From positions 2,670,001 through 2,734,000 of the forward strand of contig NZ_CP117425.1 of NCBI RefSeq assembly GCF_030687295.1: a stretch of DNA of 64,000 nucleotides. Reading direction: 5' to 3'. Source of the DNA: Pseudomonas beijingensis (GTDB lineage: Bacteria > Pseudomonadota > Gammaproteobacteria > Pseudomonadales > Pseudomonadaceae). The notes under the pieces were generated by a model. The model was given only the letters and a program-made list of their open reading frames with translations, did no database searches and had not been told where the DNA came from. The translations under genes were made by a program, and so were the position numbers. Positions 23,062-60,835 of the stretch are shown here, piece after piece. The first letter of the stretch is position 1; each line of letters begins with the position of its first letter.

Positions 23062-26000
23062 ATGGCAGCGCTCATCGGTATCGTCAGCAAAGTAGTCGGG
23101 CAAGTTTTCGCAGAAGCGGCCGGTGGCCTGCGGCGGCCTTTGGTCGAAGGCGATCGGCTCTATGCCGGCGAACACTTGGTCACCGGTGCCGAAGGGGCCG
23201 TGGCGGTTCATCTGCAGAACGGCCAGTCATTGACCCTGGGCCGCGGAAGCGACCTGACTCTGACCCCGCAGCTGCTGGCCAACCATGCGCCTCATGTCGA
23301 TACGCCCGACACGACGACGCCGAGTGACGCGCAACTGACCGATGTGCAAAAGCTGCAGCAAGCCATCGCCGCCGGAGCCGACCCGACCCAGACCGGTGAA
23401 GCCACCGCTGCTGGCCCCGAAGGTGGTAACCCGGGGGGCGTGGGTGGTGGGCACAGTTTTGTGCTGCTGGAAGAAGTTGGCGGGGAGGTCGATCCGCTGA
23501 TCGGTTTCCCGACGGCCGGGTTCAACGGGATTCCCGAGTTTCCGCAGCTACGCTTGGCCGGTGACCCGGATAACACTGGCGACGATGCAACCGTGCCGCC
23601 AGTGACCCCTGAGACGCCGGACAACCCCGTGACCCTCGACGGGGTCAACGTCGAGGGCGGCGAGCTGACCACCAACGAGGCCAATCTGGCCGATGGTTCG
23701 GCCAGCAATCCGGGGGCGCTGGTGCAAAATGGCACCTTCACGGTGTCCGCGCCTGACGGGCTGAGCAGCCTGAGCATCGGCGGCATCAACGTGATCAGTG
23801 GCGGTGTGCCCGCCGGCTTTCCTCAAACCATCACCTCGGCGCTGGGCAACACGTTGACCATCACCGGTTATGACCCGGCTACGGGAGTGGTCAGCTACAC
23901 CTACACCCTGACGGACAATGAAACCCATCCTGCCGGTGGCGGTGCCAATAACATTACCGAGCAGTTCCCAGTGGTGGCCGTCGACACCGACGGTGATACG
24001 GCCACCGGCACCCTGGACGTCAACATCACCGATGACGTGCCCCAGGCGATTGACGACAGCCACGCCAGCACGGCGTCGGAAACCCTGGTCACTCTTACCG
24101 GCAACGTATTGCCCAACGACCACCAGGGCGCCGACCGGATCCCCACCGGCCCCGACAGCGGGCCGATCATTGGCGGGACGTTCACCGGCACCTACGGCAC
24201 GCTGGTGCTCAACCCCAACGGCACGTACACCTACACCCTGAACACCAGCGACCCGCAATTCGTCGCGTTGCATGGCGGGGGCAGCGGCACCGAAACCTTC
24301 ACCTACACCCTGACCGACGCCGACGGCGACACCAGCACCGCGAACCTGGTATTGCAGGTGCACAACAATGACGATCCGGTGGTGTTGGTGGGCTTGGATG
24401 CTGAAGGTGGCGAGCTGTCGTTGCAGGAGAAAAACCTCAGTGATGGCAGCAGCCCGGACGCGTCGGCCCTGACCCAAAGCGGCACCTTTACCGTGACCGC
24501 GTTGGACGGTGTGCAGACCCTGAGCGTGGGGGGGATCAATGTGGTTGTAGGTGGTGTGGCAGCGGGTTTCCCTCAGTCCATCACCACCGCACTGGGCAAC
24601 ACCCTGACCATCACTGGCTACGACGCCGCTACCGGTGTAGTGAGTTACAGCTACACCTTGCTGGACAACGAAGCTCATCCAAATGCCAATGGCGCCAACA
24701 GCGTTAGCGAGCAATTCGCCGTAGTTGCCACTGACGACAACGGCACCACCGCCAACGGCAATTTGGACGTGAACATCGTCGACGACCTGCCCAAGGCCGT
24801 AGATGACAGTAACGCCAGCACGGCTTCGGAAACCCACCTGACCCTGACCGGCAGTGTGCTGACGAATGACACCCAAGGCGCGGACCCTGTAGCGTCCGGC
24901 CCAATCACCCCCGGCACCTTCACTGGCACTTACGGCACCCTGGTGCTCAACGCCGACGGTTCCTACACCTACACCCTCAACACCGCTGATGCCGACTTCA
25001 AAGGTTTGCATGGCGGCGGCAACGGCAGCGAAACCTTCACCTACACCCTGACCGACGCTGATGGCGACACCAGCACCGCGAACCTGGTGCTGCAAGTGCA
25101 CAACAACGACGACCCTGTGATTATCACCGGCCTCGACACCGAGGGTGGTGAGCTGTCGCTGCAGGAGAAAAACCTCAGCGACGGCAGCAGTCCGGACGCA
25201 TCGGCTCTGACTCAAAGCGGCACGTTCACGGTGACCGCGCTGGATGGTGTGCAGACCCTGAGTGTGGGTGGCATCAATGTGGTGACGGGCGGCGTAGCAG
25301 CCGGTTTCCCACAATCGATCACCACTGCTCTGGGCAACACCCTGACCATCACCGGCTTCAACGCCGCTACCGGTGTAGTGAGTTACAGCTACACCTTGCT
25401 GGACAACGAAGCCCATCCAAACGCCAACGGCGCCAACAGCGTTAGCGAGCAATTCGCCGTAGTTGCCACTGACGACAACGGCACCACCGCCAACGGCAAT
25501 TTGGACGTGAACATCGTCGACGACCTGCCCAAGGCCGTAGATGACAGCAACGCCAGCACGGCTTCGGAAACCCACCTGACCCTGACCGGCAGTGTGCTGA
25601 CGAATGACACCCAAGGCGCGGACCCTGTAGCGTCCGGCCCAATCACCCCCGGCACCTTCACTGGCACTTACGGCACCCTGGTGCTCAACGCCGACGGCTC
25701 CTACACCTACACCCTCAACACTGCCGATGCCGACTTCAAAGGTTTACATGGCGGCGGCAATGGCAGCGAAACCTTCACCTACACCCTGACCGACGCCGAC
25801 GGCGACACCAGCACCGCGAACTTGGTGCTGCAAGTGCACAACAACGACGACCCAGTGATTATCACTGGCCTCGACACCGAGGGCGGTGAGCTGTCGTTGC
25901 AGGAGAAAAACCTCAGCGACGGCAGCAGTCCGGACGCATCGGCTCTGACTCAAAGCGGCACGTTCACGGTGACGGCGCTGGACGGTGTGCAGACGTTGAG

Positions 26001-29000
26001 CGTGGGCGGCATCAATGTGGTTATAGGTGGTGTGGCAGCGGGTTTCCCTCAGTCCATCACCACTGCGTTGGGCAACACCCTGACCATCACCGGCTTCAAC
26101 GCCAGCACGGGCGTGGTCAGCTACAGCTACACCTTGCTGGACAACGAAGCCCATCCAAACGCCAACGGCGCCAACAGCGTTAGCGAGCAATTTGCCGTAG
26201 TTGTTACCGATGACAACGGCACCACCGCCAACGGCAATCTGGACGTGAACATCGTCGATGACTTGCCAACCGCTCATGCTGACTCCGCCTCGGTGGATGA
26301 AGGCGGGACGGTCAGTGGCAACGTCCTGAACAACGATGAAGGCGGTGCCGACGGGCCGGCTGCGAGCGGTGCGGTGATCGGTGTGCGTGCTGGCAACGAC
26401 ACCTCGACCCCGGCGATTGGCGGCCTGAATACCCAGATCAACGGCACCTACGGCTACCTGACCCTGGACGCCAACGGCAACGCCGTCTACCACAGCAACC
26501 CGAACACCGTCAGTGCCCCAGGTGCAACCGATGTTTTCACCTACACCGTGCGCGACGCCGATGGCGATGAAAGCACCACCACCATCACCATCGATGTTCA
26601 TGACGTCTGCCTAGTCGCCACGCCCGACCAAGGAATCAGCGTCTACGAAAAAGCCCTCGACCTGAACCAGGACGGCCAGGACCTGGCTCCCGGCACCGTC
26701 ACCGGCAGCGCTCCGAGCGCCACCAGCGAGACCGCCAGCGGCAGCCTCGTCGGTTCGATCAGCGGTGCCGTGGGCGCAGTAACCTTCGCGCTGGTGGGCA
26801 ACGCTACGGGTGCTTACGGTCAACTGTCGCTTCAGCCTGACGGTTCGTATACCTACACCCTGACCTCGCCAGCCACCACCACGCCTCACGCCAACGATGG
26901 CCCGAATGTGCTGAGCGAAAGCTTCACCTATCAGGCCACGGATTCCTTGGGCAACACGGTCACCAGCACCATTGTCATCGACATCGTCGACGACGTGCCC
27001 AACGCCCATGCCGATTTTGCCTCGGTACTGGAGGGTGGCACGGTCAGCGGCAATGTGCTGGACAACGACGTGCTTGGCGCGGACGGTGGCATGGTGATTG
27101 GCGTGCGCGCCGGTAATGACACCTCTAACCCTGCTGTCGGTGGCCTCAACAGCCAGATCAACGGCACTTACGGCTACTTGACCCTGGACGCCAACGGCAA
27201 CGCCGTCTACCACAGTAATCCGAACACCGTCAGCGCCCCGGGCGCGACCGATGTCTTCACCTACACCGTGCGTGACGCCGACGGCGACGAAAGCACCACC
27301 ACCATCACCATCGATGTCCATGAAAGCTGCCTCGTTGCCACATCGGACCAGGAAATCAGCGTCTACGAAAAAGCCCTCGACCTGAACCAGGACGGCCAGG
27401 ACCTGGCCCCCGGCACCGTCACCGGCAGCGCTCCGAGCGCCACCAGCGAGACCGCCAGCGGCAGCCTCGTCGGTTCGATCAGCGGTGCCGTGGGCGCAGT
27501 AACCTTCGCGCTGGTGGGCAACGCTACCGGTGCTTACGGTCAACTGTCGCTTCAGCCGGACGGTTCGTATACCTACACCCTGACCTCGCCAGCCACCACT
27601 ACGCCTCACGCCAACGATGGCCCGAATGTCCTGAGCGAAAGCTTCACCTACCAGGCCACGGACTCCTTGGGCAACACGGTCACCAGTACTATCGTTATCG
27701 ACATCGTCGACGATGTGCCCAAGGCCCACTGCGATTTCGCCTCGGTGGTAGAGGGCGGGACAGTCAATGGCAACGTGCTGGACAACGATGTACTCGGTGC
27801 CGACGGCGGTGCAGTCATCGGTGTGCGTGCCGGTAACGACACCTCGACCCCGGCCATCGGCGGCCTGAACAGCCAGATCAACGGCACCTACGGCTACCTG
27901 ACCCTGGATGCCAACGGCAACGCGGTCTACCACAGCAACCCCGACGCTGTTGGCGCCCCCGGCGCGACCGATGTCTTCACCTACACCGTGCGTGATGCCG
28001 ATGGTGATGAGAGCACCACGACCGTCACCATTGACGTGCACAACAGCTGCCTCGTCGCGGAAACCGACCACGACATTACCGTCTACGAAAAAGCCCTCGA
28101 CCTGAACCAGGACGGCCAGGACCTGGCCCCCGGCACCGTCACCGGCAGTGACCCGAGCGCCACCGGTGAAACCGCCAGCGGTAGCTTGGTCGGGTCGGTC
28201 AGCGGGGCCACGGGCGCCGTCACCTTCACCCTGGTGGGCAACGCCACGGGTGCCTACGGCCAGTTGTTGCTCCATCCTGATGGTTCGTACACCTACACCC
28301 TGACCTCGCCAGCTACGACGACGCCCCACGCCAATGATGGCCCGAATGCTCTGAGCGAAAGCTTCACCTACCAGGCCACGGACTCCCTGGGCAACAGCAC
28401 CACCGGCAGCCTCGTGGTGAGCATTGTCGATGACGTGCCAAAGGCCGTTGCGTCCGAGCGTTCGGTCACGGCGGTGGAGGTCGATTCGAACCTGCTGATC
28501 GTGCTCGACGTCTCCGGCAGCATGAAAGACGCCTCCGGCGTGCCGGGGCTCTCGCGGATGGAGTTGGCCAAACAGGCGATCAGCGCCTTGCTCGACAAAT
28601 ACGACGACATGGGCGATGTGAAAGTCCAGCTCGTGACCTTCAGCGGCAGCGCCACCGACCAGAGCACCATGTGGGTGGATGTGGCAACTGCCAAGACGCT
28701 GATCTCCGCGCTGAACGCGCACGGCGACACCAACTATGATGCTGCCGTAGCGATGGCCAAGACTGCGTTCGCAAATTCCGGCCAACTGACCGGCGCACAG
28801 AACGTCGGCTATTTCTTCTCCGACGGCAAGCCGACCTTGGGCGAAATCGGCACGGCAGACGAAACCGCTTGGAAAGCCTTCCTCGACGCCAACGGCATAA
28901 AGAACTACGCCATTGGCCTGGGCAGCGGCGTCAGCAATGCTCACCTCGACCCGCTGGCCTACGACGGCAGCGCCCACACCAACACCAACGCGGTAGTGGT

Positions 29001-30894
29001 CACCGACCTGAACCAGCTCAACTCGGTGCTCTCCGGCACCGTGCAAGGCGCGCCGGTTACCGGCAACCTGTTGGATGAGGGGGGTTCGTTCGGCGCCGAT
29101 GGCGGGTTTATCAAAAACCTGGTGGTCGATGGCACCACGTACAGCTACGACCCGGCGGCCAACGGTGGTCACGGAGCACTGACCGCCAGCGGCGGGCTCA
29201 ACCATGGCTCCTTCAATACCGCCACCAATACATTGAGCATCGCCACCGACCACCACGGTACTTTGGTGGTCAACCTGGATACCGGTGCGTTCAGCTACAC
29301 CTCCCAGACGGCCACCAGCACCTTGATCACCGAGCACATCGGCTACACCGTCAGCGACCATGACGGTGACCTGGCGAGCTCTAACCTGGTGATCAACGTC
29401 GTGCCCAACAGCCCGCCGATCGCTGTTGACGACAACATCATCACCAATGTGCTGTCGGGCAACATCGTGATCCCGGGCGAATTGCTGCTGGGTAACGACA
29501 GCGACGCCAACGGCGATCCACTCACCGCATCACCCACCAGTTTCAATACCGGATGGGTCGCCAAAGGCGCGGACTTCACCGGCAGCACCGGCACGGCCAG
29601 CTTCACCGGCAACAACGTGCAGTCGATCAACCTCAGCCGCAGTGCCTTCGTCGCCAATACCGCGAGCATGACGGCGATGCTGGTGGTCAGCGGTGCATTG
29701 GGGATGGTCTCCAACAACAACGCCAACGATGAAGACCGCCTCAACATCAGCCTCAAACAGGGCGAAACCCTCACCCTGGACCACAACCTGTCGGCCGGTC
29801 GCATTGCGATGGAGTATTCACTCAATGGCGGGCCCTTCATCGCGATCAACGATGGAGCTTCTTTCACCGCGGCAGCGGATGGCAATTACCAGATCCACGT
29901 CACCAACATTGCCAATCCCGGCGGCGGTAATGCCAACGCTGCGGAAAACTATCAACTGACCCTGACGGTCGACTATGCCGGGGCGCAGGACAAAACAGCG
30001 GATTACCACGGCAGCTACACCGCCAGCGACAACCACGGCGGCAGTGACAGCGCATCGGTAGGCATCAGTTATCAGGCGGGCCATACCCTGACGGGCACCA
30101 GTGGCGACGATGTGCTGTTGGCCGGCAACGGCGACGACACCCTCAACGCCGGCGACGGCAACGACATCCTCAGTGCCGGTTCGGGCAACAACACCTTGCA
30201 TGGCGGGGCAGGGGATGACGTGCTCTACAGCGGCACGGGCAATGACCTGCTCGATGGCGGCAGCGGTAACGACACCGCCAGCTACGCCCATGCCACATCA
30301 GCGGTCACGGTGAACCTGGGACTGTTGGCGGCGCAGAACACCCTGGGCGCCGGCACCGACACCCTGGCCGGCATCGAAAACCTCGTCGGCTCGAACTTCA
30401 ATGACACCCTCACGGGCGATGGCGCCAGCAACCGCATCAACGGCGGACTTGGCAACGACGTGCTCAATGGCGCTGGTGGCGACGACATGCTGATCGGCGG
30501 CTTGGGCAACAACACCCTCACCGGCGGCAGCGGCGCCGACACCTTTCAATGGCAGGCGGGCAACAGCGGCCACGACGTGATCACCGACTTCGCGCTCGGC
30601 GTCGACAAACTCGACCTGTCCCAACTGTTGCAAGGAGAGAACGGCAGCGCGGCGTTACTGGATGACTACCTGCATTTCAGCGTGAGCGGCAGCGGTGGGT
30701 CGGTCGTCACCAGCATCGACGTCAGCGCCATTGCCGGTGCCACGCCGAACCAGACCATCGACCTGGCCGGCGTCAACCTGGCCAGCCACTACGGCGTCAC
30801 GCCGGGCGCGGGGGGAATCATCGGTGGAGCGGACACGGCGACCATCATCAACGGCATGTTGAATGATCATTCGTTGAAGGTGGACACGGTGTGA
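23062..30894 (+). CDS. Giant RTX adhesin of the LapA/MapA type
   Basis: This 2610-residue surface adhesin mediates biofilm attachment. Residues 1-110 form the LapA-type retention module (LIGIVSKVVGQVFAEAAGG), and TAAG at 115-118 is the LapG cleavage motif. Residues about 190-1066 hold 246-residue VCBS/Ig-like repeats and 1067-1790 three 240-244-residue repeats of a second type. A VWA domain has its MIDAS motif DVSGS at 1816-1820. RTX nonapeptides (GNGDDTLNAGDGNDILSAG) begin near 2344, and the C-terminal type I secretion signal follows. I start at the ATG eight bases after GGAGG. The divergent LapC/B/E-type genes are its exporter. No lapD or lapG is nearby; being half the size of Pf0-1 LapA, it may be the second adhesin MapA. 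Confidence 0.92.
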   Translation: MAALIGIVSKVVGQVFAEAAGGLRRPLVEGDRLYAGEHLVTGAEGAVAVHLQNGQSLTLGRGSDLTLTPQLLANHAPHVDTPDTTTPSDAQLTDVQKLQQAIAAGADPTQTGEATAAGPEGGNPGGVGGGHSFVLLEEVGGEVDPLIGFPTAGFNGIPEFPQLRLAGDPDNTGDDATVPPVTPETPDNPVTLDGVNVEGGELTTNEANLADGSASNPGALVQNGTFTVSAPDGLSSLSIGGINVISGGVPAGFPQTITSALGNTLTITGYDPATGVVSYTYTLTDNETHPAGGGANNITEQFPVVAVDTDGDTATGTLDVNITDDVPQAIDDSHASTASETLVTLTGNVLPNDHQGADRIPTGPDSGPIIGGTFTGTYGTLVLNPNGTYTYTLNTSDPQFVALHGGGSGTETFTYTLTDADGDTSTANLVLQVHNNDDPVVLVGLDAEGGELSLQEKNLSDGSSPDASALTQSGTFTVTALDGVQTLSVGGINVVVGGVAAGFPQSITTALGNTLTITGYDAATGVVSYSYTLLDNEAHPNANGANSVSEQFAVVATDDNGTTANGNLDVNIVDDLPKAVDDSNASTASETHLTLTGSVLTNDTQGADPVASGPITPGTFTGTYGTLVLNADGSYTYTLNTADADFKGLHGGGNGSETFTYTLTDADGDTSTANLVLQVHNNDDPVIITGLDTEGGELSLQEKNLSDGSSPDASALTQSGTFTVTALDGVQTLSVGGINVVTGGVAAGFPQSITTALGNTLTITGFNAATGVVSYSYTLLDNEAHPNANGANSVSEQFAVVATDDNGTTANGNLDVNIVDDLPKAVDDSNASTASETHLTLTGSVLTNDTQGADPVASGPITPGTFTGTYGTLVLNADGSYTYTLNTADADFKGLHGGGNGSETFTYTLTDADGDTSTANLVLQVHNNDDPVIITGLDTEGGELSLQEKNLSDGSSPDASALTQSGTFTVTALDGVQTLSVGGINVVIGGVAAGFPQSITTALGNTLTITGFNASTGVVSYSYTLLDNEAHPNANGANSVSEQFAVVVTDDNGTTANGNLDVNIVDDLPTAHADSASVDEGGTVSGNVLNNDEGGADGPAASGAVIGVRAGNDTSTPAIGGLNTQINGTYGYLTLDANGNAVYHSNPNTVSAPGATDVFTYTVRDADGDESTTTITIDVHDVCLVATPDQGISVYEKALDLNQDGQDLAPGTVTGSAPSATSETASGSLVGSISGAVGAVTFALVGNATGAYGQLSLQPDGSYTYTLTSPATTTPHANDGPNVLSESFTYQATDSLGNTVTSTIVIDIVDDVPNAHADFASVLEGGTVSGNVLDNDVLGADGGMVIGVRAGNDTSNPAVGGLNSQINGTYGYLTLDANGNAVYHSNPNTVSAPGATDVFTYTVRDADGDESTTTITIDVHESCLVATSDQEISVYEKALDLNQDGQDLAPGTVTGSAPSATSETASGSLVGSISGAVGAVTFALVGNATGAYGQLSLQPDGSYTYTLTSPATTTPHANDGPNVLSESFTYQATDSLGNTVTSTIVIDIVDDVPKAHCDFASVVEGGTVNGNVLDNDVLGADGGAVIGVRAGNDTSTPAIGGLNSQINGTYGYLTLDANGNAVYHSNPDAVGAPGATDVFTYTVRDADGDESTTTVTIDVHNSCLVAETDHDITVYEKALDLNQDGQDLAPGTVTGSDPSATGETASGSLVGSVSGATGAVTFTLVGNATGAYGQLLLHPDGSYTYTLTSPATTTPHANDGPNALSESFTYQATDSLGNSTTGSLVVSIVDDVPKAVASERSVTAVEVDSNLLIVLDVSGSMKDASGVPGLSRMELAKQAISALLDKYDDMGDVKVQLVTFSGSATDQSTMWVDVATAKTLISALNAHGDTNYDAAVAMAKTAFANSGQLTGAQNVGYFFSDGKPTLGEIGTADETAWKAFLDANGIKNYAIGLGSGVSNAHLDPLAYDGSAHTNTNAVVVTDLNQLNSVLSGTVQGAPVTGNLLDEGGSFGADGGFIKNLVVDGTTYSYDPAANGGHGALTASGGLNHGSFNTATNTLSIATDHHGTLVVNLDTGAFSYTSQTATSTLITEHIGYTVSDHDGDLASSNLVINVVPNSPPIAVDDNIITNVLSGNIVIPGELLLGNDSDANGDPLTASPTSFNTGWVAKGADFTGSTGTASFTGNNVQSINLSRSAFVANTASMTAMLVVSGALGMVSNNNANDEDRLNISLKQGETLTLDHNLSAGRIAMEYSLNGGPFIAINDGASFTAAADGNYQIHVTNIANPGGGNANAAENYQLTLTVDYAGAQDKTADYHGSYTASDNHGGSDSASVGISYQAGHTLTGTSGDDVLLAGNGDDTLNAGDGNDILSAGSGNNTLHGGAGDDVLYSGTGNDLLDGGSGNDTASYAHATSAVTVNLGLLAAQNTLGAGTDTLAGIENLVGSNFNDTLTGDGASNRINGGLGNDVLNGAGGDDMLIGGLGNNTLTGGSGADTFQWQAGNSGHDVITDFALGVDKLDLSQLLQGENGSAALLDDYLHFSVSGSGGSVVTSIDVSAIAGATPNQTIDLAGVNLASHYGVTPGAGGIIGGADTATIINGMLNDHSLKVDTV
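24373..26259 (+). repeat. 738-bp tandem repeats inside the adhesin gene
   Basis: Units start at 24373, 25111 and 25849, exactly 738 bases apart (246 codons each; the last is partial). A diverged earlier copy begins near 23620. The full units are nearly identical at the DNA level, including synonymous positions, which points to recent duplication or gene conversion. Confidence 0.9.
26260..28431 (+). repeat. 720-bp tandem repeats inside the adhesin gene
   Basis: Three units start at 26260 (732 bases), 26992 (720) and 27712 (720). Comparing 26641-26880 with 27361-27600 I count four differences in 240 bases. The protein motif VYEKALDLNQDGQDLAPGTV recurs once per unit. Confidence 0.9.
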
Positions 30895-51787: not shown

Positions 51788-51917
51788 GCCTTGGCGGGGG
51801 CGTTTTTTCCCTGGTATGGGATTTGCTAGATCGTGGCTGTCCCCCGCTTATTCAGAGTAGGTGGCGATTTTTTGACAGGGCTGAGGCCCGGTTTCGGCTG
51901 CGTACGTGAGGCTCAGG

Positions 51918-52619
51918 ATGCAAAAAAAAATAGCTGTGGTGCAGTCGAACTACATCCCTTGGAAGGGGTATTTCGATCTGATCCGCAGCGTCGATGCGTT
52001 CATCCTGTACGACGATGTCCAGTACACCCGGAGTGACTGGCGCAACCGCAACAAGATCAAGACTGCCCAGGGTGAGCATTGGCTCAGTATTCCGGTCAAG
52101 AAGAAGGGCCGTCTCGGACAGTTGATCAATGAAGTCCAGATCACCAGTGCGGATTGGGCCGCCGCGCACTGGAAGACGATTGAGCAGAGCTACCGGCGCG
52201 CACCGTGCTTCGCCCAGATGGAGGCGCCGATTCGCGCGCTCTACGAGCAGGCAGCCGACCTCACCCACCTGACTCGCATCAACCACCTGTTCATCGCCGG
52301 CTTGTGCCCCCTGCTGGGCATCCATACACCGCTTCACCGTTCCGAGGACCTGGGTGGCGTAGAGGGCAAGAACGAACGCCTGATCCATCTCTGCCAGGCT
52401 CTCGGGGCCAACGAATACCTCTCTGGACCCGCCGCCAGTCACTATCTCGACGAAGCGGCGTTCGCCGCCAACGGGATCGCCGTGTCGTACATGAGCTATG
52501 CCGGTTATCCCGAGTACCCGCAGGTGTATGGCGAGTTCCAGCACGCGGTCAGCGTCATCGACCTGTTGTTCAACACCGGCGCGGATGCATCGGCTTTTCT
52601 GGAGAAAAGGGCTGCCTGA
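51918..52619 (+). CDS. WbqC-family protein
   Basis: The 233-residue protein matches WbqC-like proteins found in O-antigen and glycan clusters: VVQSNYIPWKGYFDLIRSVD, FILYDDVQYTRSDWRNRNKI, and INHLFIAGLCPLLGI. The biochemical role is not established; family members often accompany amino-sugar pathways and have been linked to their N-acylation. A GAGG precedes the ATG at 51918. It opens the seven-gene glycan cassette that ends before flgF and starts 130 bases after phhR. Confidence 0.85.
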   Translation: MQKKIAVVQSNYIPWKGYFDLIRSVDAFILYDDVQYTRSDWRNRNKIKTAQGEHWLSIPVKKKGRLGQLINEVQITSADWAAAHWKTIEQSYRRAPCFAQMEAPIRALYEQAADLTHLTRINHLFIAGLCPLLGIHTPLHRSEDLGGVEGKNERLIHLCQALGANEYLSGPAASHYLDEAAFAANGIAVSYMSYAGYPEYPQVYGEFQHAVSVIDLLFNTGADASAFLEKRAA

Positions 52620-52671
52620 GCGGGCCTTGCCAGTGACACCCTTTTTGATTTGATTCTGGAGATTGCACCCG

Positions 52672-55600
52672 ATGTCGAACCTTGCGCAGCTGGACGCTCA
52701 TTCGCTTGAACAGGCGCTGGCGCGTCTGCGGCTGATGTATGCCAAACCCGAGCATCCGTACTACTTCCTGGCGCCGGCCTACCGTGAGTCGTCGTCGGGC
52801 GTCGTCTCGCTGCACTACCTCTGCCACATGCTCAATCTCAGTGGTCGTGAGGCCTACATCTGCGGTACCGAAGTGGTCAATCCAGACCTCAAGACACCCG
52901 TGATCGATTCCGCAATCAAACAGCGCCATGCGGCGGCGGGCAAGGTGCCGATCGCGGTTTATCCCGAGGTGTTCCCAGGCAATCCGCTCAACTGTTCGGT
53001 CGTGGCGCGTTTTCTCCTGAATTTCGAGGGGTTCCTCACGGGAAATGGCATGAACGCCGCGCCCACCGACCTGTTTTTCTATTACGCCGCCCGGCTCGCC
53101 GAGCATCGTGGTGACCTTGACGGTGACCTGTTGTGCCTGCCGGCGATCGATATCGAAATGTTCTCGACGGTGGGCGCCGCAGCTGTGCGTAAAGGGAGCT
53201 ATCTCTACCAGAACCGCCACCCGTTGGACCAGATCGACTATGCGCTACTGCCAGCGGATGTCCGCCTGCTGAGCATGGCCAATCCCTTGTCCTTGCCTGA
53301 GCTGGCCGAGCTGCTGCGCAGTGCGGAAGTGATGTACAGCTACGAGTGGTCAATGACCTGCGTCATGGCAGTGCTGTGTGGCTGCCCGGTGATCTTCATT
53401 CCGGGGCATGGCGTCGACCAGCCACTGCTCGACAATAGTTTCTTCGGCAGCGTCGGCTTTGCCATGCTCGATCAGCCCAACCCGTTGGAACAGGCGCGGG
53501 CAAGCCTCGGTGATGCCTTGCATCGTTACGTCGAACGCACCGCGTCTTTCTGGCAGCAGCTGGACGTGTTCATTGCAAAAACCCAGGCGTCTGCCGCTCG
53601 AGAGGCGGTTGGAAATCGTCTGGGGGCGCTCGACTGGTTACGCCAACGTTACCCGACGGCGCAGCAATTGCGTCAGATCAACGAGCAGTTGGCGAGCTCG
53701 GCTGCACCCAGTTTCACTGTCCTGGTCCGCGATGACGGCAATCAGTTGGCGCTGGCTCATACCCTGGACAGCCTGGATCGACAGTTATACCAGCGCATCC
53801 ATGTGTGTGTGATGGGGGCCACTGACCCGGGGCGTGCCAACGTTCATTGGCTGGCGTGCGATCCCAAGCAACCGGCAACCGCGATCAATGGCTTGCTCGA
53901 GGGCGTCCAGAGCGATTGGTTCATGCTGGTGGAGGCGGAGGAGGAGTTCATCGCCGCAGGGTTGCTGGTGACGGCTCTGAATCTGCTTGATGCGCCTGAC
54001 GGGTGCCTGGCGGTGTACGCCGACGAGGCGCAGCGTACGGGCGGTGTGATCGACCTCTCGTTGCGACCCGATCTGAACCTGGATTTGTTGTTGGCGTTTC
54101 CGGCCAGCCATTCCCGTCACTGGCTGTACCGTCGTGAGGCGCTGGTGCGCTTGAGCGGTTTTGATAATGCCTGCGGTGAGGCTTTTGAATTGGCCTACCA
54201 ACTGCGCTTGATCAGCGAGCAGGGCGCGGCGAGCGTCGGTCATGTCAACGAACCCCTGTTGATCGCCAATGAGGTGCGGCAGTCGGAGTGCGCGGACGAG
54301 CGTGCGGTCATCGATGCGCATCTGCAAGCGCGTGGTTACGCTCAGGCGCGAGCGATTGCGTTGGAGCCGGGCCGCTATCGTATCGACTACGGCCACGAGC
54401 GGCAGGCCTCGGTCAGTATTCTGATTTACCTGGAAGGACAGTTGGCGAATTTCCAGCGTTGCCTGGAAAGCCTGCTGACGCAGACCCGCGCGGTGGACTT
54501 CGAGGTCTTGCTGGTTGAGCCGGGCAACGACGAGCCTGCATTGCTGGAGTGGCTGGGGCTGGTCGAGGAAATGGGCGAAGGCCGGTTCCAGGTGCTGCGG
54601 TTCATGCCCGGGCAGTCGCGTGCGGCCATGTGCAATGCGGCGGCTCAAGAGGCGCGCGGCGAGTATCTGCTCTGGCTCGATGCGCAAAGCGTTGTGCTTG
54701 AGCCTGGGTGGCTGCAAGCGTTGCTCAATCACGCTCAGCGTCCGGAAGTGGGCGCCGTGGGAGGCAAATTGCAGGATAGCCAAGGCCGCATACGACAAGC
54801 GGGCCTGGTGTTGGGACAGGGCGGCGTTGTCGGTCGGGCGTTTGAGGGCCTGCCATCCCAGGCCGCAGGTTACATGGGGCGGCTTGGGCTTGAGCAGAAC
54901 TGCTCCGCAGTGGGCGGTGAATGCCTGATGCTGCGGCGGGACCTGTTTCTCGAGGCCGATGGTTTCGACACCGATCCGCTGCTGGCGCCCTGGACCGATC
55001 TCGACCTGTGCCTGAAGCTGCAGCAGGCCGGTTACCTGAACGTCTGGACGCCTCACGCGCGGCTGTTGGTCAACCCGGCGGCAGATGCCCGTGCAAGTAG
55101 CGAGCAGGAGGATGCCTTGTTCGCGCGCTGGTTGCCGCAGTTGGCCCGCGACCCGGCCTACAATGCCAACCTTTCGCTGCGCGCCGGCGAAGGTTTTGTC
55201 CGGGAAAACAAGGACCTGTGCTGGTATCCCCTGCAAGGCAGCGTGCCAAGGGTGCTGGTTTTTGTCACCGAGCAGCGGGCGGGTGCTTATTCGCGACTGG
55301 TCCAACCGTTCAGCACGTTGCTTGACGCGGGGCAAATCGAAGGCGCGGCGGTTTCGAGCCTGCTGTCGCCGGTGGAGATCGAGCGCCTGGCGCCGACGAC
55401 CGTCGTGTTGCAGCGCCCCCTGGATGACGCCGGGCTGCTCGCCCTGAGCCGCCTGAGGGCGTTTTCCAAGGCCTTCACCGTCTACGAACTGGACGGCTAC
55501 TTGCCGCAGATGGAATTGAAGGGCGATTACGCTGCCGATGAACTGTTGGAACGGCTGCGGTTCGGCATGCTGCAAGCCGATCGGGTGCTGGTCCCCACGC

Positions 55601-56208
55601 CAGCGCTGGCCGAACTGTTGCAGGGCCAGCATGACGACATCCGCGTGCTGGAAACCCTGCTGCCGGCCGCCTGGGGGCGTGTACAAAGCAAGCGAGGCAT
55701 GGGGCCCAAGCCGCGCCTGGGTTGGTTGGGCGGCAAGGATACTCAACTGCTGGCGGACGTGCTGCCCGCGTTCGCTGGCGAAGTGGACTGGGTGGTGCTG
55801 GGCGACTGCCCCGCGTCACTGCAGCCTTTCCTGAAGGAGCTCCATCCAACGGTGGCGCAGCAGCAGTTGGCGGGCGCCATGGCAGCCTTGAATCTGGATC
55901 TTGCACTGGTACCCATGGCTGAAACCCTGGGCAATGCCTGCTCGGGTGACCTGCGTGTCCTGCAGCATGCCGCATGCGGCCATCCGGTCATTTGCAGCCG
56001 GGTGCCGGGTTTTGTCGGCGGCGAGGTATTGCCTTTGTCCCGGGTCAGTAACGAGGCGCAAGACTGGATCCGGGCGATTCGCTTGCACCTGGAAGACCGT
56101 GAGGCTTCCGCGACGCTGGGGGACGCCTTGCAGTCGACGGTGCGGGCGCAATGGCTGCTCGAAGGCGAGCGCCTGGACGCCTGGCGACGAGCCTGGTTGG
56201 CCGATTGA
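52672..56208 (+). CDS. Large multi-domain glycosyltransferase (FgtA-like context)
   Basis: The 1178-residue protein appears to hold several glycosyltransferase modules. These are an N-terminal GT-B-like region (about 15-320, with VMAVLCGCPVIFIPGHGVDQ), a degenerate GT2-like region (about 345-560), a GT2 domain (about 585-830: VSILIYLEGQLANFQRCLES, GEYLLWLDAQSVVLEPGWLQ), and a C-terminal GT-B region (about 860-1178, ending LRVLQHAACGHPVICSRVPG). A single chain may add two or three sugars in order. Similarly large transferases modify flagellin in other pseudomonads, such as FgtA of P. aeruginosa. The location next to flgF suggests the same here, but the acceptor is inferred. GGAG precedes the ATG by ten bases. 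Confidence 0.78.
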   Translation: MSNLAQLDAHSLEQALARLRLMYAKPEHPYYFLAPAYRESSSGVVSLHYLCHMLNLSGREAYICGTEVVNPDLKTPVIDSAIKQRHAAAGKVPIAVYPEVFPGNPLNCSVVARFLLNFEGFLTGNGMNAAPTDLFFYYAARLAEHRGDLDGDLLCLPAIDIEMFSTVGAAAVRKGSYLYQNRHPLDQIDYALLPADVRLLSMANPLSLPELAELLRSAEVMYSYEWSMTCVMAVLCGCPVIFIPGHGVDQPLLDNSFFGSVGFAMLDQPNPLEQARASLGDALHRYVERTASFWQQLDVFIAKTQASAAREAVGNRLGALDWLRQRYPTAQQLRQINEQLASSAAPSFTVLVRDDGNQLALAHTLDSLDRQLYQRIHVCVMGATDPGRANVHWLACDPKQPATAINGLLEGVQSDWFMLVEAEEEFIAAGLLVTALNLLDAPDGCLAVYADEAQRTGGVIDLSLRPDLNLDLLLAFPASHSRHWLYRREALVRLSGFDNACGEAFELAYQLRLISEQGAASVGHVNEPLLIANEVRQSECADERAVIDAHLQARGYAQARAIALEPGRYRIDYGHERQASVSILIYLEGQLANFQRCLESLLTQTRAVDFEVLLVEPGNDEPALLEWLGLVEEMGEGRFQVLRFMPGQSRAAMCNAAAQEARGEYLLWLDAQSVVLEPGWLQALLNHAQRPEVGAVGGKLQDSQGRIRQAGLVLGQGGVVGRAFEGLPSQAAGYMGRLGLEQNCSAVGGECLMLRRDLFLEADGFDTDPLLAPWTDLDLCLKLQQAGYLNVWTPHARLLVNPAADARASSEQEDALFARWLPQLARDPAYNANLSLRAGEGFVRENKDLCWYPLQGSVPRVLVFVTEQRAGAYSRLVQPFSTLLDAGQIEGAAVSSLLSPVEIERLAPTTVVLQRPLDDAGLLALSRLRAFSKAFTVYELDGYLPQMELKGDYAADELLERLRFGMLQADRVLVPTPALAELLQGQHDDIRVLETLLPAAWGRVQSKRGMGPKPRLGWLGGKDTQLLADVLPAFAGEVDWVVLGDCPASLQPFLKELHPTVAQQQLAGAMAALNLDLALVPMAETLGNACSGDLRVLQHAACGHPVICSRVPGFVGGEVLPLSRVSNEAQDWIRAIRLHLEDREASATLGDALQSTVRAQWLLEGERLDAWRRAWLAD

Positions 56209-56252
56209 TCCCTACTAATATGACCTTGGTCGCTCAGCGGAGAACCTGTGAC

Positions 56253-56981
56253 ATGAGCAACGATCTCGATACCTTCATCGCAGCCTACAGCGACAGCTTT
56301 GGCTACGCGTTTGACAACAACATCATTCTCAATTGGTATCCCCAACGCATCATGGCGCTGTGCACCAAGGAGCAGAGCCTGCTGGAGCTTGGTGTTGGCC
56401 ATGGCTTCAGCACCCACCGCTTCTCGCAGTTCTTCAGCGAGCACACAGTCATCGACGGCTCCGCATCGGTGATCGCCCAGTTCAAGTCCCAATACCCGGA
56501 CAATACGGCCGAGATCGTCGAAAGTTATTTCGAGACATTCGACACCGACAAGCGTTTCGATCTCATCGTGATGGGTTTTATCCTTGAACATGTCGATGAT
56601 CCACAGACCGTACTGCAAAGGTTCAAGCGCTTCCTTGCTCCGGGCGGTCGTTGCTTCGTGCTGGTTCCCAATGGCGAATCCCTGCATCGGCGGTTCGGTC
56701 ATGCGGCCGGACTGCTTGGCGACATGACGGCGCTGGGCAGTGGCGATCTGGAGTTGGGCCATATGCGCAGCTACTCGCTACAGACCCTGACCGCTGAAAT
56801 TGAAGCCGCGGGCCTCCAGGTAGTGCGCAAGGAAGGCGTGTTCCTCAAACCCTTCACCACCGGGCAATTGAAAGACTTGAACTTGAGTCCGGACATCATT
56901 CAAGCCATGTGCACCGTAGGCGTCGATTATCCAGAGCTGTGTTGTGCAATGATGCTGGAAGCGACAGTCACCTCGTCATGA
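56253..56981 (+). CDS. Class I SAM-dependent methyltransferase
   Basis: The 242-residue protein has the SAM-binding motif I LLELGVGHGFSTHRF at about residue 50, motif II FDLIVMGFILEHVDDP, and the later FLAPGGRCFVLVPNGES. It probably methylates a sugar of the cassette's glycan or its precursor. The start MSNDLDTFIAAYSDSFGYAF has GGAGAA upstream. The stop overlaps the next start by four bases (ATGA), so it is coupled to the epimerase gene. Confidence 0.83.
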   Translation: MSNDLDTFIAAYSDSFGYAFDNNIILNWYPQRIMALCTKEQSLLELGVGHGFSTHRFSQFFSEHTVIDGSASVIAQFKSQYPDNTAEIVESYFETFDTDKRFDLIVMGFILEHVDDPQTVLQRFKRFLAPGGRCFVLVPNGESLHRRFGHAAGLLGDMTALGSGDLELGHMRSYSLQTLTAEIEAAGLQVVRKEGVFLKPFTTGQLKDLNLSPDIIQAMCTVGVDYPELCCAMMLEATVTSS

Positions 56982-57826
56982 AAAGCCTGGTCATAGGAAG
57001 TACTTCAGTCATTGGCAAGGCCGTCGCCCGGGAGTTGTCGCGCTATGGCCAAGTCAAATTGGCGGGGCGCCGGGACGCTGATATTGCCTTTGACTTGAAT
57101 AGCCAGCTGCCCGGCGCCTGCGACGAGCGCTTCGACGTGGTCGTGTTGGCAGCGGCCGATTTTGGCGGCGGCCAGCCAGATGATCTGATTCGCGCCGAAC
57201 GGGTCAACAGTGTCGGTACATTGGCGGCCTGCCGCCTGGCCGAACATTGCGGGGCGCGTCATTTCATTCTGCTGTCGTCGCGTTGGGCCAGTCACCAGGC
57301 GACGGATCCTTACTTTGGCATCTACTCGCTGTCCAAGCGCCATGGCGAGGAAGTGGCGAGCCTGTATTGCCAGGAGCGCGGCATGGCGTTGACGGTCCTG
57401 CGCATCAGTCAGGTCTACGATGACGGCGAGCAGTGCCGGCCTCACCAACCGTTGCTGTATGCCATTGCCGACAAGGCGCAGGTGGGGCGCACCGTCGAGC
57501 TGTATGGCAGCAACGACGCCAGGCGCAACTACTTGCATTTGAGTGACCTTGCCGAGGTCTGCGCGCGGCTGGCAGAGCAGGGGGTTACGGGCTTGTACAA
57601 CTGCGGCCACCCTGACAGCCCCCGTCTTTCCGAGATTGCCCGGGCCGCGTTCGAGGCGTTTGGCAAGCCGTCGGACGTCCGCTTCCTGCCGGAAAAGAAC
57701 GATATTCCAGATTTGCCTCCCTTTGACTGTGGGCATGATTTGTACGAGCAAATAGGTTTCGTCCCGCGAATCGATGTTCGCCAGGGTTTTGAGCGGATGA
57801 GAGCGCACCGGGAGAGCCTGTCATGA
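56978..57826 (+). CDS. NAD-dependent epimerase/dehydratase (SDR) family
   Basis: The 282-residue protein is an extended short-chain dehydrogenase: Rossmann start SLVIGSTSVIGKAVARELS, Ser in FILLSSRWASHQ, and the catalytic YSLSK. It likely reduces or epimerises a nucleotide sugar, for example a 4-keto-6-deoxy hexose, in the cassette pathway. It overlaps its neighbours by four bases on both sides (ATGA), so translation is coupled from the methyltransferase through to the ATP-grasp gene. The substrate is not determined. Confidence 0.85.
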   Translation: MKSLVIGSTSVIGKAVARELSRYGQVKLAGRRDADIAFDLNSQLPGACDERFDVVVLAAADFGGGQPDDLIRAERVNSVGTLAACRLAEHCGARHFILLSSRWASHQATDPYFGIYSLSKRHGEEVASLYCQERGMALTVLRISQVYDDGEQCRPHQPLLYAIADKAQVGRTVELYGSNDARRNYLHLSDLAEVCARLAEQGVTGLYNCGHPDSPRLSEIARAAFEAFGKPSDVRFLPEKNDIPDLPPFDCGHDLYEQIGFVPRIDVRQGFERMRAHRESLS

Positions 57827-58800
57827 AGACTGTCATGGTGACAGGCGTCGGCGCCATCATGGGTTACGGCCTGCTCAAGTCGCTGCGTGCGGCGGACCCT
57901 TCTGTTCGGCTGGTCGGCACCGATATCTACGACGACGCCGTCGGTCGCGGCTGGTGCGATGTATTCGTGCAGGCTCCTTTGACCGCTGACGCGGGGTACG
58001 CCCAGTGGCTGGGCGATACGCTGGCCAGGCACGAGGTCGACCTGCTGATTCCCGGGATCGAACAGGATGTCCATTGGCTATCGGATAACCGAGCGTTGTT
58101 GGCGACGTTCGATTGTCAGGTTGTGCTCAACAACCAGCGCTTGATTGATCTTTCCAAAGACAAGTGGGCCATGGACCAGGCGCTGGTGGCGCTGGGAGAT
58201 GCCAGCCGTATTCCCAGCCTGCTGTCGGGGGATTTTCACGCGCTCAAGGCGGCCTTGGGCCTGCCGTTCCTGCTCAAGCCGCGCCGAAGCTACGCCTCCA
58301 AAGGGCTGGTCTGGGTTCGCGAGGAGCGCGACTTCACGCCTCACGCGGCCCTGCTCGGTGACTACCTCATGGCGCAACCCATCATTGGCAGCGCGGCCGA
58401 CGAATTCACCGTGGCGGCGTTTGGCGATGGCCGGGGAGACACCGGTCCGATCATCAGCTTCCAGCGCAAGTTGGCGTCGGACGGGTCAACCGCCAAGGCC
58501 TGGGTATATCAGGACGATTCGCTGGATAAAACAGTCGCCAGGTTGTGCCGCGCCTTCAAACCGGTGGGCCCGACCAACTTGCAATTCCGTCGTGGCAGCG
58601 ATGCCTCCTGGAGCCTGCTGGAGATCAATCCGCGAATATCTTCGACCAGTTCGATACGACGCGCATTCGGCTACAACGAGGCGGCCATGTGCCTGGATTT
58701 TTACCTCGATGGCAAGACATCGGGCCAGCCGATCATCCGCAGTGGTTTCGCCGTTCGTTATATAGAGGATTTCATTGTCTATGATCGGGATCATTTCTGA
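57823..58800 (+). CDS. ATP-grasp family ligase
   Basis: The 325-residue protein has an N-terminal Rossmann-like domain (VMVTGVGAIMGYGLLKSLRA) and an ATP-grasp fold: ATP-binding LPFLLKPRRSYASKGLVWV and the metal-binding LLEINPRISSTSS. It resembles CarB/PylC-type ligases, which join a carboxylate to an amine via an acyl phosphate. In this cassette it could couple an amino acid or hydroxy acid to the amino sugar made by the RffA-like enzyme; that is inference. Its 3' end overlaps the next gene by 20 bases. Confidence 0.8.
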   Translation: MKTVMVTGVGAIMGYGLLKSLRAADPSVRLVGTDIYDDAVGRGWCDVFVQAPLTADAGYAQWLGDTLARHEVDLLIPGIEQDVHWLSDNRALLATFDCQVVLNNQRLIDLSKDKWAMDQALVALGDASRIPSLLSGDFHALKAALGLPFLLKPRRSYASKGLVWVREERDFTPHAALLGDYLMAQPIIGSAADEFTVAAFGDGRGDTGPIISFQRKLASDGSTAKAWVYQDDSLDKTVARLCRAFKPVGPTNLQFRRGSDASWSLLEINPRISSTSSIRRAFGYNEAAMCLDFYLDGKTSGQPIIRSGFAVRYIEDFIVYDRDHF

Positions 58801-59458
58801 CGTACATGGCAATTACAGCGCCTTGCGGACAGTGCTTGCCAAGCTGGATGAGCTGGGTGTCTCGCGGATTATCTGCCTGGGTGACACGGCGGGTTATTAC
58901 AGCCAGGTCAATGAGTGTTGCGAGGCCCTGCGCGAACGAAACATTTTCTCCGTGATGGGCAATCATGATTGGTACCTGGCGAAGAATGAGCGCTGCCCTC
59001 GTTCCAATAGCGCCAATGCCTGCCTGGATTATCAACAGGGCGTCATCACTTCGCAGAATCTGGCCTGGCTGGGATCGCTCCCGGAGCGCTCGACCCTGCA
59101 TGAATTAAGCATCGTCCATGGCGGCTGGAACGATCCGCTGGACGAATACGTACGACCCTCGCAAGCGTATTTCGCGCCGTTGCCTGGCCGCTATTTCGCC
59201 TCAGGCCATACCCACGTCCAGTACTTGTGGAGCGGGGAGGACAAGGTCTATTGCAACCCCGGTTCCGTCGGCCAGCCACGTGATGGCGATCCCCGGGCAG
59301 GCTTTGCGACCTGGGACGGTGAAACCTTCAATCTGCACCGGGTTGCATACGCGATTGGTGAAACCCAACAGGCCATGAAGAACGCCGGGTTTACCCCGTA
59401 CTTTTATGAAAATCTTGATATCGGCAGTCAGATAGGCGGGCGGATCAGTGCGGTTTGA
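58781..59458 (+). CDS. Metallophosphoesterase, YfcE-like
   Basis: The 225-residue protein carries calcineurin-type motifs: ISDVHGN, LGDTAGYY, MGNHDW, VHGGWND and SGHTHVQY, all metal ligands present. The closest overall layout is the small YfcE/MJ0936 phosphodiesterase group. It overlaps the ATP-grasp gene by 20 bases, so the two products probably act together. A TTG at 58775, only five bases after AGAGGA, is an alternative start that adds two residues. The substrate is unknown; a phosphoester intermediate or carrier is possible. Confidence 0.82.
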   Translation: MIGIISDVHGNYSALRTVLAKLDELGVSRIICLGDTAGYYSQVNECCEALRERNIFSVMGNHDWYLAKNERCPRSNSANACLDYQQGVITSQNLAWLGSLPERSTLHELSIVHGGWNDPLDEYVRPSQAYFAPLPGRYFASGHTHVQYLWSGEDKVYCNPGSVGQPRDGDPRAGFATWDGETFNLHRVAYAIGETQQAMKNAGFTPYFYENLDIGSQIGGRISAV

Positions 59459-59509
59459 AGTTTTGTGCTGTGCGCCACCCATGACCATGCCTCCCCTGGG
59501 AAGTTTGCA

Positions 59510-60661
59510 ATGAGCAAAGAAACGATACTCTTCAATCGCCCGTATATGACTGGCAAGGAACTGGATTACATTGCCCAGGCCAAGTTCGGCAACATGCTCG
59601 CCGGTGATGGCCCGTTCACCAAGCAGTGCCACCGCTGGCTGGAGTCCCACACGGGGTGCAACAAGGCATTGCTCACTCACTCCTGTACCGCTGCGCTGGA
59701 AATGGCCGCTCTGCTGCTGGACATCCAGCCTGGCGACGAAATCATCCTGCCTTCCTATACCTTCGTTTCCACGGCCAACGCCTTTGTGTTGCGCGGCGCG
59801 GTGCCGGTTTTCGTCGATGTACGTCCTGATACCCTGAACCTGGACGAGCGCCTGATCGAGGCGGCGATCACGTCACGGACCAAGGCGATCGTGCCCGTCC
59901 ATTACGCCGGCGTGGCCTGCGAAATGGACACTATCCTGGCTATTGCGCGCAAGCATGGGCTGGCGGTGGTCGAGGACGCCGCGCAAGGGGTGATGTCAAC
60001 CTACAAGGGCCGAGCCTTGGGCAGTATTGGCGACCTTGGCGCATTCAGTTTTCACGAAACCAAGAACGTGATCTCGGGGGAGGGCGGGGCGTTGCTGGCC
60101 AATGAGCCTGCCATGGCACTGCGCGCCGAGATCATTCGGGAAAAAGGCACCGATCGCAGTCGATTCTTCAGGGGCGAGGTGGACAAATACACTTGGCAAG
60201 AGGTGGGATCCTCCTTTCTGCCCGGAGAAATGACGGCAGCCTTCCTTTGGGCCCAGTTGGAAGAGGCGCAAGCCATCACCAGCCGCCGCCTGGCGGTCTG
60301 GGACCACTACCATGCCGCTTTGGCGGGGCTTGAGCAGCAAGGGTTGCTGCGTCGTCCGATCGTTCCTGAACATTGCCAGCACAATGCGCACATGTATTAC
60401 GTACTCCTCGCCCCTGGCGTGGAGCGCCAGGTTGTCCTCGAGACGCTCAAGAGCCACGCGATCTATGCGGTGTTCCATTACGTGCCGCTGCATTCATCCC
60501 CCGGCGGCGCGCGCTATGGGCGTGTTCATGGCTCAATGGAAATTACCGACGGTTATTCCGAGCGGCTGCTGCGTTTGCCGATGTGGCTCGGTCTATCCAA
60601 GGATCAACAAGACCGCGTGGTCGATGTGCTCGGCAGTGCTTTGGCAGCCCTTGCCACTTAG
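59510..60661 (+). CDS. rffA: dTDP-4-amino-4,6-dideoxygalactose transaminase
   Basis: RffA (WecE) makes dTDP-4-amino-4,6-dideoxy-D-galactose from the 4-keto sugar with glutamate and PLP. The 383-residue sequence shares long stretches with E. coli RffA, such as LEMAALLLDIQPGDE, PSYTFVSTANAFVLRG and IVPVHYAGVACEMDTI, and has the PLP lysine Lys185 in FHETKN. E. coli reads TAGGEGG where this protein has ISGEGG, a one-residue deletion beside the active site. The start has GGGAAG upstream. Last gene of the cassette, it suggests a Fuc4N-type sugar in the glycan. Confidence 0.88.
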   Translation: MSKETILFNRPYMTGKELDYIAQAKFGNMLAGDGPFTKQCHRWLESHTGCNKALLTHSCTAALEMAALLLDIQPGDEIILPSYTFVSTANAFVLRGAVPVFVDVRPDTLNLDERLIEAAITSRTKAIVPVHYAGVACEMDTILAIARKHGLAVVEDAAQGVMSTYKGRALGSIGDLGAFSFHETKNVISGEGGALLANEPAMALRAEIIREKGTDRSRFFRGEVDKYTWQEVGSSFLPGEMTAAFLWAQLEEAQAITSRRLAVWDHYHAALAGLEQQGLLRRPIVPEHCQHNAHMYYVLLAPGVERQVVLETLKSHAIYAVFHYVPLHSSPGGARYGRVHGSMEITDGYSERLLRLPMWLGLSKDQQDRVVDVLGSALAALAT

Positions 60662-60763: not shown

Positions 60764-60778
60764 TGGTCTGCAAATTGC
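60764..60778 (+). promoter_or_regulatory. Sigma-54 (-24/-12) promoter of flgF
   Basis: TGGTCTGCAAATTGC has the GG-N10-GC spacing and a perfect TTGC -12 element of RpoN promoters (TGGCAC-N5-TTGC). The predicted start near 60790 is about 45 bases before flgF. In pseudomonads many flagellar genes of this class use RpoN with FleQ or FleR. A hairpin at 60719-60747 (CCCAGA-G-CCCTT with AAGGG-TCTGGG) just upstream may end the glycan transcript. Confidence 0.65.
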
Positions 60779-60835
60779 TTAAGGCTGTGCAACACAGCAG
60801 TGGGCGGCAAACGTCCGGCATGCAGAGGAACGACA

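What the first reader, a model, noticed from the sequence alone, without database searches (positions are those of the whole stretch)
51918..60661. Seven-gene glycan cassette docked upstream of flgFGHI, with a possible ATP-grasp amino-sugar ligation step
WbqC-like, a 1178-residue multi-domain glycosyltransferase, methyltransferase, SDR, ATP-grasp, metallophosphoesterase and RffA-type aminotransferase genes run in one direction with ATGA and 20-base overlaps. No acetyl-CoA-type N-acetyltransferase or formyltransferase is present, yet the RffA-like enzyme makes a free 4-amino sugar. ATP-grasp ligases join carboxylates to amines, so this pathway may cap Fuc4N with an amino or hydroxy acid, with WbqC and the phosphoesterase assisting. 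The flagellar neighbours suggest flagellin or hook as the target. I know no description of this exact gene set.
Basis: partly seen in the sequence, partly recalled or inferred. Interest (0 to 1): 0.75.

Follow-up and report, generated by a model that had tools for sequence, protein, structure and literature searches.

The report
Flagellin sugar-capping gene cassette
Seven neighbouring genes in a Pseudomonas bacterium look like a movable kit, probably switched on together with the flagellum, that builds an unusual capped amino sugar and hangs it on the flagellum protein; one of its least understood enzymes resembles an enzyme thought to join an amino acid to a sugar.

Summary
The seven genes are there as described, with the stated overlaps. 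Flagellin as target is well supported. The complete cassette occurs in two flagellar sites: phhR-flgF, or fgt2-KASIII-fliC. In three species that keep the sugar module elsewhere, the glycosyltransferase still sits in the flagellin island. A sigma-54-type site lies 104-110 bases before wbqC in 15 of 16 flagellar-locus copies examined; of 63 other Pseudomonas copies one has any such site. FliC keeps all six serines glycosylated in P. syringae. A WecE-type aminotransferase supports a dTDP-4-amino-4,6-dideoxyhexose.

The capping step is only partly supported. The ATP-grasp protein has a complete-looking active site and a PylC-like fold, but WbqC is the more constant partner, and its predicted fold best matches BshC, a putative amino-acid:amino-sugar ligase. 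Sister islands keep WbqC, aminotransferase and glycosyltransferase and lack ATP-grasp and phosphoesterase. I read WbqC as the likelier amide-forming enzyme, ATP-grasp plus phosphoesterase as a variable tail. No chemistry was shown. It is a new variant of the known Pseudomonas flagellin glycosylation island.

The parts
51812..51827 (+). sigma-54-type promoter-like site TGGTATGGGATTTGCT, 106 bases before wbqC
   Evidence: 10 of 12 consensus positions (consensus recalled); at the same distance in 15 of 16 flagellar-locus wbqC copies examined; of 63 other Pseudomonas wbqC copies one has any site scoring 10 or more, at -20
51918..52619 (+). WbqC-family protein (233 aa); predicted HUP/class-I-synthetase-like fold; proposed amide-forming ligase on the amino sugar
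52672..56208 (+). multi-domain glycosyltransferase (1178 aa), size and role like VioT of P. syringae; proposed terminal amino-sugar transferase
   Evidence: PF00535 in the middle; close relatives sit in the flagellin island beside fgt1/fgt2
56253..56981 (+). class I SAM methyltransferase (242 aa), proposed O-methylation
   Evidence: Methyltransf_23 and others; in 26 of 29 related loci
56978..57826 (+). extended SDR, sugar-nucleotide epimerase/reductase-like (282 aa)
   Evidence: PF01370 68 bits; in 21 of 29 related loci
57823..58800 (+). ATP-grasp protein (325 aa), PRK12767/ATPgrasp_Ter group, proposed carboxylate-amine ligase
58781..59458 (+). calcineurin-like phosphoesterase (225 aa) overlapping the ATP-grasp gene by 20 bases
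   Evidence: PF12850; D7, H9, D35, N61, H62, H113, H143, H145 invariant in 32 sequences; directly after ATP-grasp in 29 of 29 loci
59510..60661 (+). WecE/RffA-type dTDP-4-amino-4,6-dideoxyhexose aminotransferase (383 aa)
   Evidence: TIGR02379 634 bits, cut-off 435; best solved relative 4piw, E 2.9e-149
60764..60779 (+). sigma-54-type site before flgF, possibly the flagellar operon's own promoter kept downstream of the cassette
   Evidence: 9 of 12 consensus positions

Best explanation
The cassette is a horizontally moving, flagellar-regulated flagellin glycosylation module. Housekeeping RmlA/RmlB supply dTDP-4-keto-6-deoxyglucose. The WecE-type enzyme aminates it to dTDP-4-amino-4,6-dideoxyhexose (Fuc4N by family). 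The 4-amino group is then capped by an amide: WbqC, with a BshC/class-I-synthetase-like fold, is the likeliest enzyme to join an amino acid or other acid to the sugar amine. The ATP-grasp ligase with its phosphoesterase builds or extends that acid, and SDR and methyltransferase adjust acid or sugar. The 1178-residue glycosyltransferase puts the finished sugar at the end of the rhamnose chain that Fgt1/Fgt2-like enzymes build on flagellin serines. Shown by computation: the gene set, its flagellar linkage, the promoter-like site, complete catalytic motifs, predicted folds. Inferred from named pathways: dTDP-sugar supply, Fuc4N, terminal position. Inferred only: which enzyme makes the amide, what the cap is, what the phosphoesterase removes.
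Against: No chemistry was tested. Foldseek gives BshC only E 0.044, and no WbqC match reaches 0.001; no sequence link to BshC was seen; BshC's own activity had not been shown in vitro in the review passages read (PMC4360819). The module also occurs without a nearby DegT aminotransferase (L015, L016, L032) and, in most Rhizobiales loci, beside aminotransferases only about 30% alike and other sugar genes, so its product need not be capped Fuc4N. L017 lacks WbqC. In 11 of 74 wbqC regions no DegT gene was found, and about 25 of the 55 positives are one conserved cluster type with the gene about 5 kb away. A KASIII gene beside fliC could supply an ordinary acyl group. The copies nearest fliC in L121 (Pseudomonas) and L031 (Cupriavidus) have no sigma-54-type site.
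Confidence: 0.6

Rival explanations
1. One reading: the ATP-grasp enzyme itself caps the 4-amino group of dTDP-Fuc4N with a carboxylic acid, the phosphoesterase and WbqC only help.
For: Complete-looking ATP-grasp site and PylC-like fold, PylC being an amide ligase (recalled); an ATP-grasp gene in C. difficile type B flagellin modification is needed for a peptidylamido-sugar (PMC5207246).
Against: Four sister flagellin islands lack ATP-grasp but keep WbqC, aminotransferase and transferase; WbqC is the partner seen with DegT aminotransferases across Pseudomonas. The C. difficile protein is PF13535 (paper's wording), ours PF15632, so it is analogy.
Confidence: 0.25
2. The amide is an ordinary 3-hydroxybutyryl-type acyl made by the KASIII gene next to fliC, as in modified viosamine of P. 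syringae, and the ATP-grasp set makes another decoration.
For: KASIII-like gene with GCSG, HQGS and GNTVS motifs between fgt2 and fliC; P. syringae VioT accepts only N-acylated viosamine (PMC3927599, section 2.3).
Against: The KASIII gene is beside fliC in islands without this cassette too (L106-L110, L117), so it is not tied to it; no VioB-type acyltransferase, FabG-type reductase or ACP in the cassette.
Confidence: 0.2
3. The genes serve O-antigen or exopolysaccharide and sit by the flagellar genes by chance; the phhR-flgF junction merely tolerates insertions.
For: 19 of 29 loci lack the big transferase, with sugar genes among the neighbours sampled; the same junction holds nap-like genes in G172 and G214.
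Against: Second flagellin-island site with the same order, split genomes that keep the transferase in the flagellin island, sigma-54-type site in flagellar copies; the genome has other DegT genes and sugar genes at 2.85-2.87 Mb.
Confidence: 0.08
4. The ATP-grasp enzyme formylates or carbamoylates the amino sugar (PurT- or carbamoyl-phosphate-like chemistry) rather than ligating a larger acid.
For: PurT and CPS-like proteins are among the fold matches; NCBIfam calls the family carbamoyl phosphate synthase-like.
Confidence: 0.07

Closest known systems
Viosamine island of Pseudomonas syringae (vioA, vioM, vioT, vioS, vioB, vioR, acp), PMC3927599 (abstract, introduction, sections 2.1, 2.3, 2.4, 2.5 and part of 2.2 read)
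   Same: 4-amino-4,6-dideoxyhexose aminotransferase, methyltransferase and a roughly 1,175-residue transferase that caps rhamnosylated flagellin; fgt1 and fgt2 upstream of fliC
   Different: vioS/vioB/vioR/acp are absent; WbqC, extended SDR, ATP-grasp and phosphoesterase stand instead; WecE-type aminotransferase; location at phhR-flgF or fgt2-KASIII
C. difficile type B flagellin modification locus (GT1-GT3 and CDR20291_0244-0247), PMC5207246 (passages seen)
   Same: Flagellar locus with amino-sugar aminotransferase and ATP-grasp gene; the ATP-grasp mutant loses the terminal peptidylamido-sugar
   Different: ATP-grasp family PF13535, FemAB-like and ornithine-cyclodeaminase-like genes; no WbqC or phosphoesterase named in those passages
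Insert between fliA and fliC of Dickeya zeae WH1, PMC9650423 (one passage seen)
   Same: WbqC, DegT aminotransferase and methyltransferase genes in a flagellar locus
   Different: No ATP-grasp or phosphoesterase named; no function proposed in the passage
BshC, bacillithiol biosynthesis (PMC4360819, passages seen; structure 4wbd)
   Same: Predicted WbqC fold matches over 220 of 233 residues; the proposed BshC reaction joins an amino acid to an amino sugar
   Different: BshC is 540 residues with extra parts; no sequence similarity seen; BshC activity unproven in vitro in the text read

Membership tests
Pseudomonas flagellin glycosylation island | Genes lie in the flagellar locus and recur there in relatives | tested here: met
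   10 of 29 loci, two sites; split genomes keep the transferase in the flagellin island
Pseudomonas flagellin glycosylation island | Flagellin serines of the P. syringae type present | tested here: met
   6 of 6 positions are Ser in FliC
Pseudomonas flagellin glycosylation island | Flagellin mass or glycan changes in mutants | not testable with these tools
   needs mass spectrometry
P. syringae viosamine island | Carries vioS, vioB, vioR and acp | tested here: not met
   none of the seven proteins is a KASIII, hexapeptide acyltransferase, FabG-type SDR or ACP
WecE/RffA aminotransferase | Passes the curated WecE cut-off | tested here: met
   TIGR02379 634 bits versus 434.85; PRK11706 617 versus 375
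ATP-grasp carboxylate-amine ligases | ATP-grasp fold with ATP/Mg-binding residues | tested here: met
ATP-grasp carboxylate-amine ligases | Forms an amide with an amino sugar | not testable with these tools
   no assay
BshC family | Shared fold | tested here: met
BshC family | Sequence family match | tested here: inconclusive
   62 WbqC members scanned against Pfam up to E 10: no BshC model among the 12 families listed, and HMMER filters drop weak hits
BshC family | Amino acid:amino sugar ligation | not testable with these tools
   no assay
C. difficile type B flagellin locus | ATP-grasp of family PF13535 | tested here: not met
   ours matches PF15632 and PRK12767 models; the PF13535 label is from PMC5207246

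The most novel reading that the evidence does not exclude
WbqC proteins, a large family without known function, are small class-I-synthetase-like ligases that load amino acids (or similar acids) onto the amine of nucleotide-linked 4-amino sugars. Flagellin and O-antigen islands pair this constant step (aminotransferase, WbqC, transferase) with interchangeable tail enzymes. In this variant the ATP-grasp/phosphoesterase pair adds a second unit, so the flagellum carries a small peptide-like or hydroxy-acid-extended sugar.
Probability: 0.35. Interest if true: 0.78.

Novelty: new variant of a known kind. Interest (0 to 1): 0.6.

Why it matters
WbqC is found in 62 of 249 sampled Pseudomonas genomes and in at least 7,998 clustered database proteins, and no function is assigned in the WbqC passages that I read. 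This locus, with a constant core and swappable tails on an abundant, easily purified protein, makes its function directly testable by intact-mass spectrometry of flagellin. Flagellin sugars also affect motility and plant immune recognition in Pseudomonas (recalled).

Tried and rejected
Rejected: a chance neighbourhood (second flagellar site, split genomes, promoter-like site); reading the GC dip as a sign of a very recent insert (GC3 0.67-0.77 against 0.81-0.83 in neighbours, suggests foreign origin but not age); another glycan gene in the 4.47-kb gaps of G172 and G214 (they are nap-like genes by my reading of the translations). Led nowhere: phmmer of ATP-grasp and WbqC against solved structures, no hits; the SDR gives only weak matches to epimerase/decarboxylase structures; Pfam scan of the WbqC alignment for a BshC link; PHROGs; papers for an experimentally assigned function of WbqC and for this gene set. 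Two papers opened for ATP-grasp (PMC11167607, PMC4431377), one on Shewanella flagellin (PMC3765264), one for RmlC (PMC8184846) and one on Plesiomonas LPS (PMC7555982) did not bear on it; passages only. The aminotransferase scan used a profile spoiled by two wrong frames and was redone with the same count of 55. My first gene calls picked many false frames and were redone; in L109 a false frame still covers part of the island. The wbqC start is a proxy. The tables were cut by the tool; one search paired 123 genomes and left out 11 that were in both tables, so one search added them (134 of 249 in all).
Full report
What is there. The window lies at 2.670-2.734 Mb of a 6.45-Mb single-contig genome whose closest named relatives at this locus are Pseudomonas. 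The seven genes at 51918-60661 are confirmed with their overlaps. They follow phhR, which ends at 51787, and precede flgF (reading frame from about 60836); flgGH and the start of flgI follow in the window. Beyond the window come flgJ, flgK, flgL, two large transferases that I take as fgt1/fgt2 (1198 and 970 aa), a KASIII-like gene, fliC, flaG, fliD, fliS and a FleQ-like regulator (names are my reading of the translations).

It is an insertion. The tables of phhR and flgF positions were cut by the tool; 134 of 249 genomes appear in both. Of these, 125 have both genes on one contig: 105 with a gap under 600 bases (median 326), twelve between 0.7 and 4.5 kb, four with 9.04-9.09 kb and four of 48-160 kb; nine have them on different contigs. 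In the four 9-kb genomes (G000, G010, G153, G156) the ATP-grasp and transferase genes lie inside that gap (coordinates). Two 4.47-kb gaps hold nap-like genes, so the junction accepts unrelated cargo. Cassette genes have GC3 of 0.67-0.77, phhR and flgFGH 0.81-0.83.

Relatives of the ATP-grasp gene. A scan of the species-level genome collection gave 29 loci (the window's own genome may be left out there). The phosphoesterase gene follows directly in 29 of 29; WbqC is present in 28 (L017 lacks it), the methyltransferase in 26, the SDR in 21, a DegT aminotransferase in 26 (best match on the same strand in 18; in L023-L030 and L033 it is only about 30-38% alike), the 1178-residue transferase in 10. 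Those ten have the window's gene order: five at phhR-flgF, five between fgt2 and the KASIII gene next to fliC; one of them (L012) is labelled Pantoea in its record but came up as a same-genus genome here (G134). Of the other nineteen I sampled neighbours in a few: rmlBACD in L014, nucleotidyltransferase-, dehydratase- and C-methyltransferase-like genes in L023, a transferase family 2 gene in L021. In Cupriavidus necator A5-1 (L031) the module lies about 6 kb from fliD and fliC. In a sample of 249 Pseudomonas genomes the ATP-grasp gene is in 12.

Split genomes. In P. entomophila COR5 (L014, G127), P. palmensis (L016, G226) and P. aegrilactucae (L015, G249) the module lies on another contig, yet each has a 70, 60 or 60% identical full-length transferase beside fgt1/fgt2-like genes in the flagellin island, and G226 and G249 also have a 58-59% identical aminotransferase there. 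Of the 12 genomes asked, nine have a transferase at 60% identity or more; the other three have 37-45%. Of 14 genomes with a transferase at 53% or more, nine carry the ATP-grasp gene; four of the other five (L106-L109) carry a sister island: WbqC (79-81%), other genes, aminotransferase (58-59%), transferase (63-65%); the fifth (L110) has neither WbqC nor aminotransferase in the stretch fetched. The other genes, checked by Pfam in L108, are a methyltransferase, a 255-residue protein without a match that reads to me like a methyltransferase, and an FAD-dependent oxidoreductase (PF01266); L106 and L107 have genes of the same size and order. A third kind (L115 by Pfam, L111 by size; transferase about 41%) has aminotransferase, WbqC, a protein without a Pfam match, GNAT, PhyH and methyltransferase. 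Thus WbqC, aminotransferase and transferase recur together and the rest varies.

Regulation. A sigma-54-type site with at least 10 of 12 consensus positions lies 104-110 bases before wbqC in 15 of 16 flagellar-locus copies examined (window, L005-L013, L018, L106-L109; L121 lacks it); 16 of 2,000 single-base shuffles of the window's upstream 200 bases hold such a site. In the 74 Pseudomonas wbqC regions fetched (of 76 matches; two partial ones dropped), 11 of 11 copies that I had classed as flagellar beforehand have it at that distance, and 1 of the other 63 has any such site, at -20; these 63 include the fliC-adjacent copy of G028 (L202, the same as L121), which has none. Most of the 11 are the same copies as. 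Seven copies of other loci, among them L031 near fliC, have none. The consensus is recalled, as is the dependence of Pseudomonas flagellar genes on sigma-54 and FleQ.

Flagellin. FliC (282 aa) has serine at all six positions glycosylated in P. syringae pv. tabaci 6605 (positions from PMC3927599; check). In that species VioT adds only N-acylated viosamine to rhamnosyl chains, and the acylation genes proposed are vioS, vioB, vioR and acp, none of which is in this cassette.

Conclusion. Flagellin as target: I put about 0.85. A 4-amino-4,6-dideoxyhexose as the base sugar: about 0.85. Amide capping involving WbqC and/or the ATP-grasp enzyme: about 0.6. WbqC as the enzyme acting on the sugar amine: about 0.4. 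These are judgements, not computed values.

Noticed in passing
window 51860-51880: A stretch GGTGGCGATTTTTTGACAGGG between the promoter-like site and wbqC is conserved in the six phhR-flgF-type copies compared (one has a single change) and overlaps a terminator-like hairpin; possibly a leader element.
   Followed up: no
L206 (G172) and L207 (G214): The phhR-flgF junction holds nap-like genes (periplasmic nitrate reductase, by my reading of the translations) in these two genomes, so this junction accepts unrelated inserts.
   Followed up: partly
L117 (G239): A relative with near-identical flanking flagellar genes (KASIII 94%, FleQ 99%) carries an entirely different flagellin island with a TPP-enzyme-like gene, a methyltransferase-like gene and a 41% transferase, and a phhR-flgF gap of under 600 bases.
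   Followed up: partly
L030 (Rhizobium sp. RCAM05350): WbqC and the phosphoesterase appear in two and three separate matched pieces; decay or sequencing errors.
   Followed up: no
window 23035-30894: A 2619-residue repeat-rich protein that looks like a large secreted adhesin, with type I secretion-like genes nearby on the other strand (my reading of the translations).
   Followed up: no
L003:12861-13829 (outside the window): KASIII-like gene between fgt2 and fliC, also present in islands without this cassette; its role in flagellin acylation remains open.
   Followed up: partly
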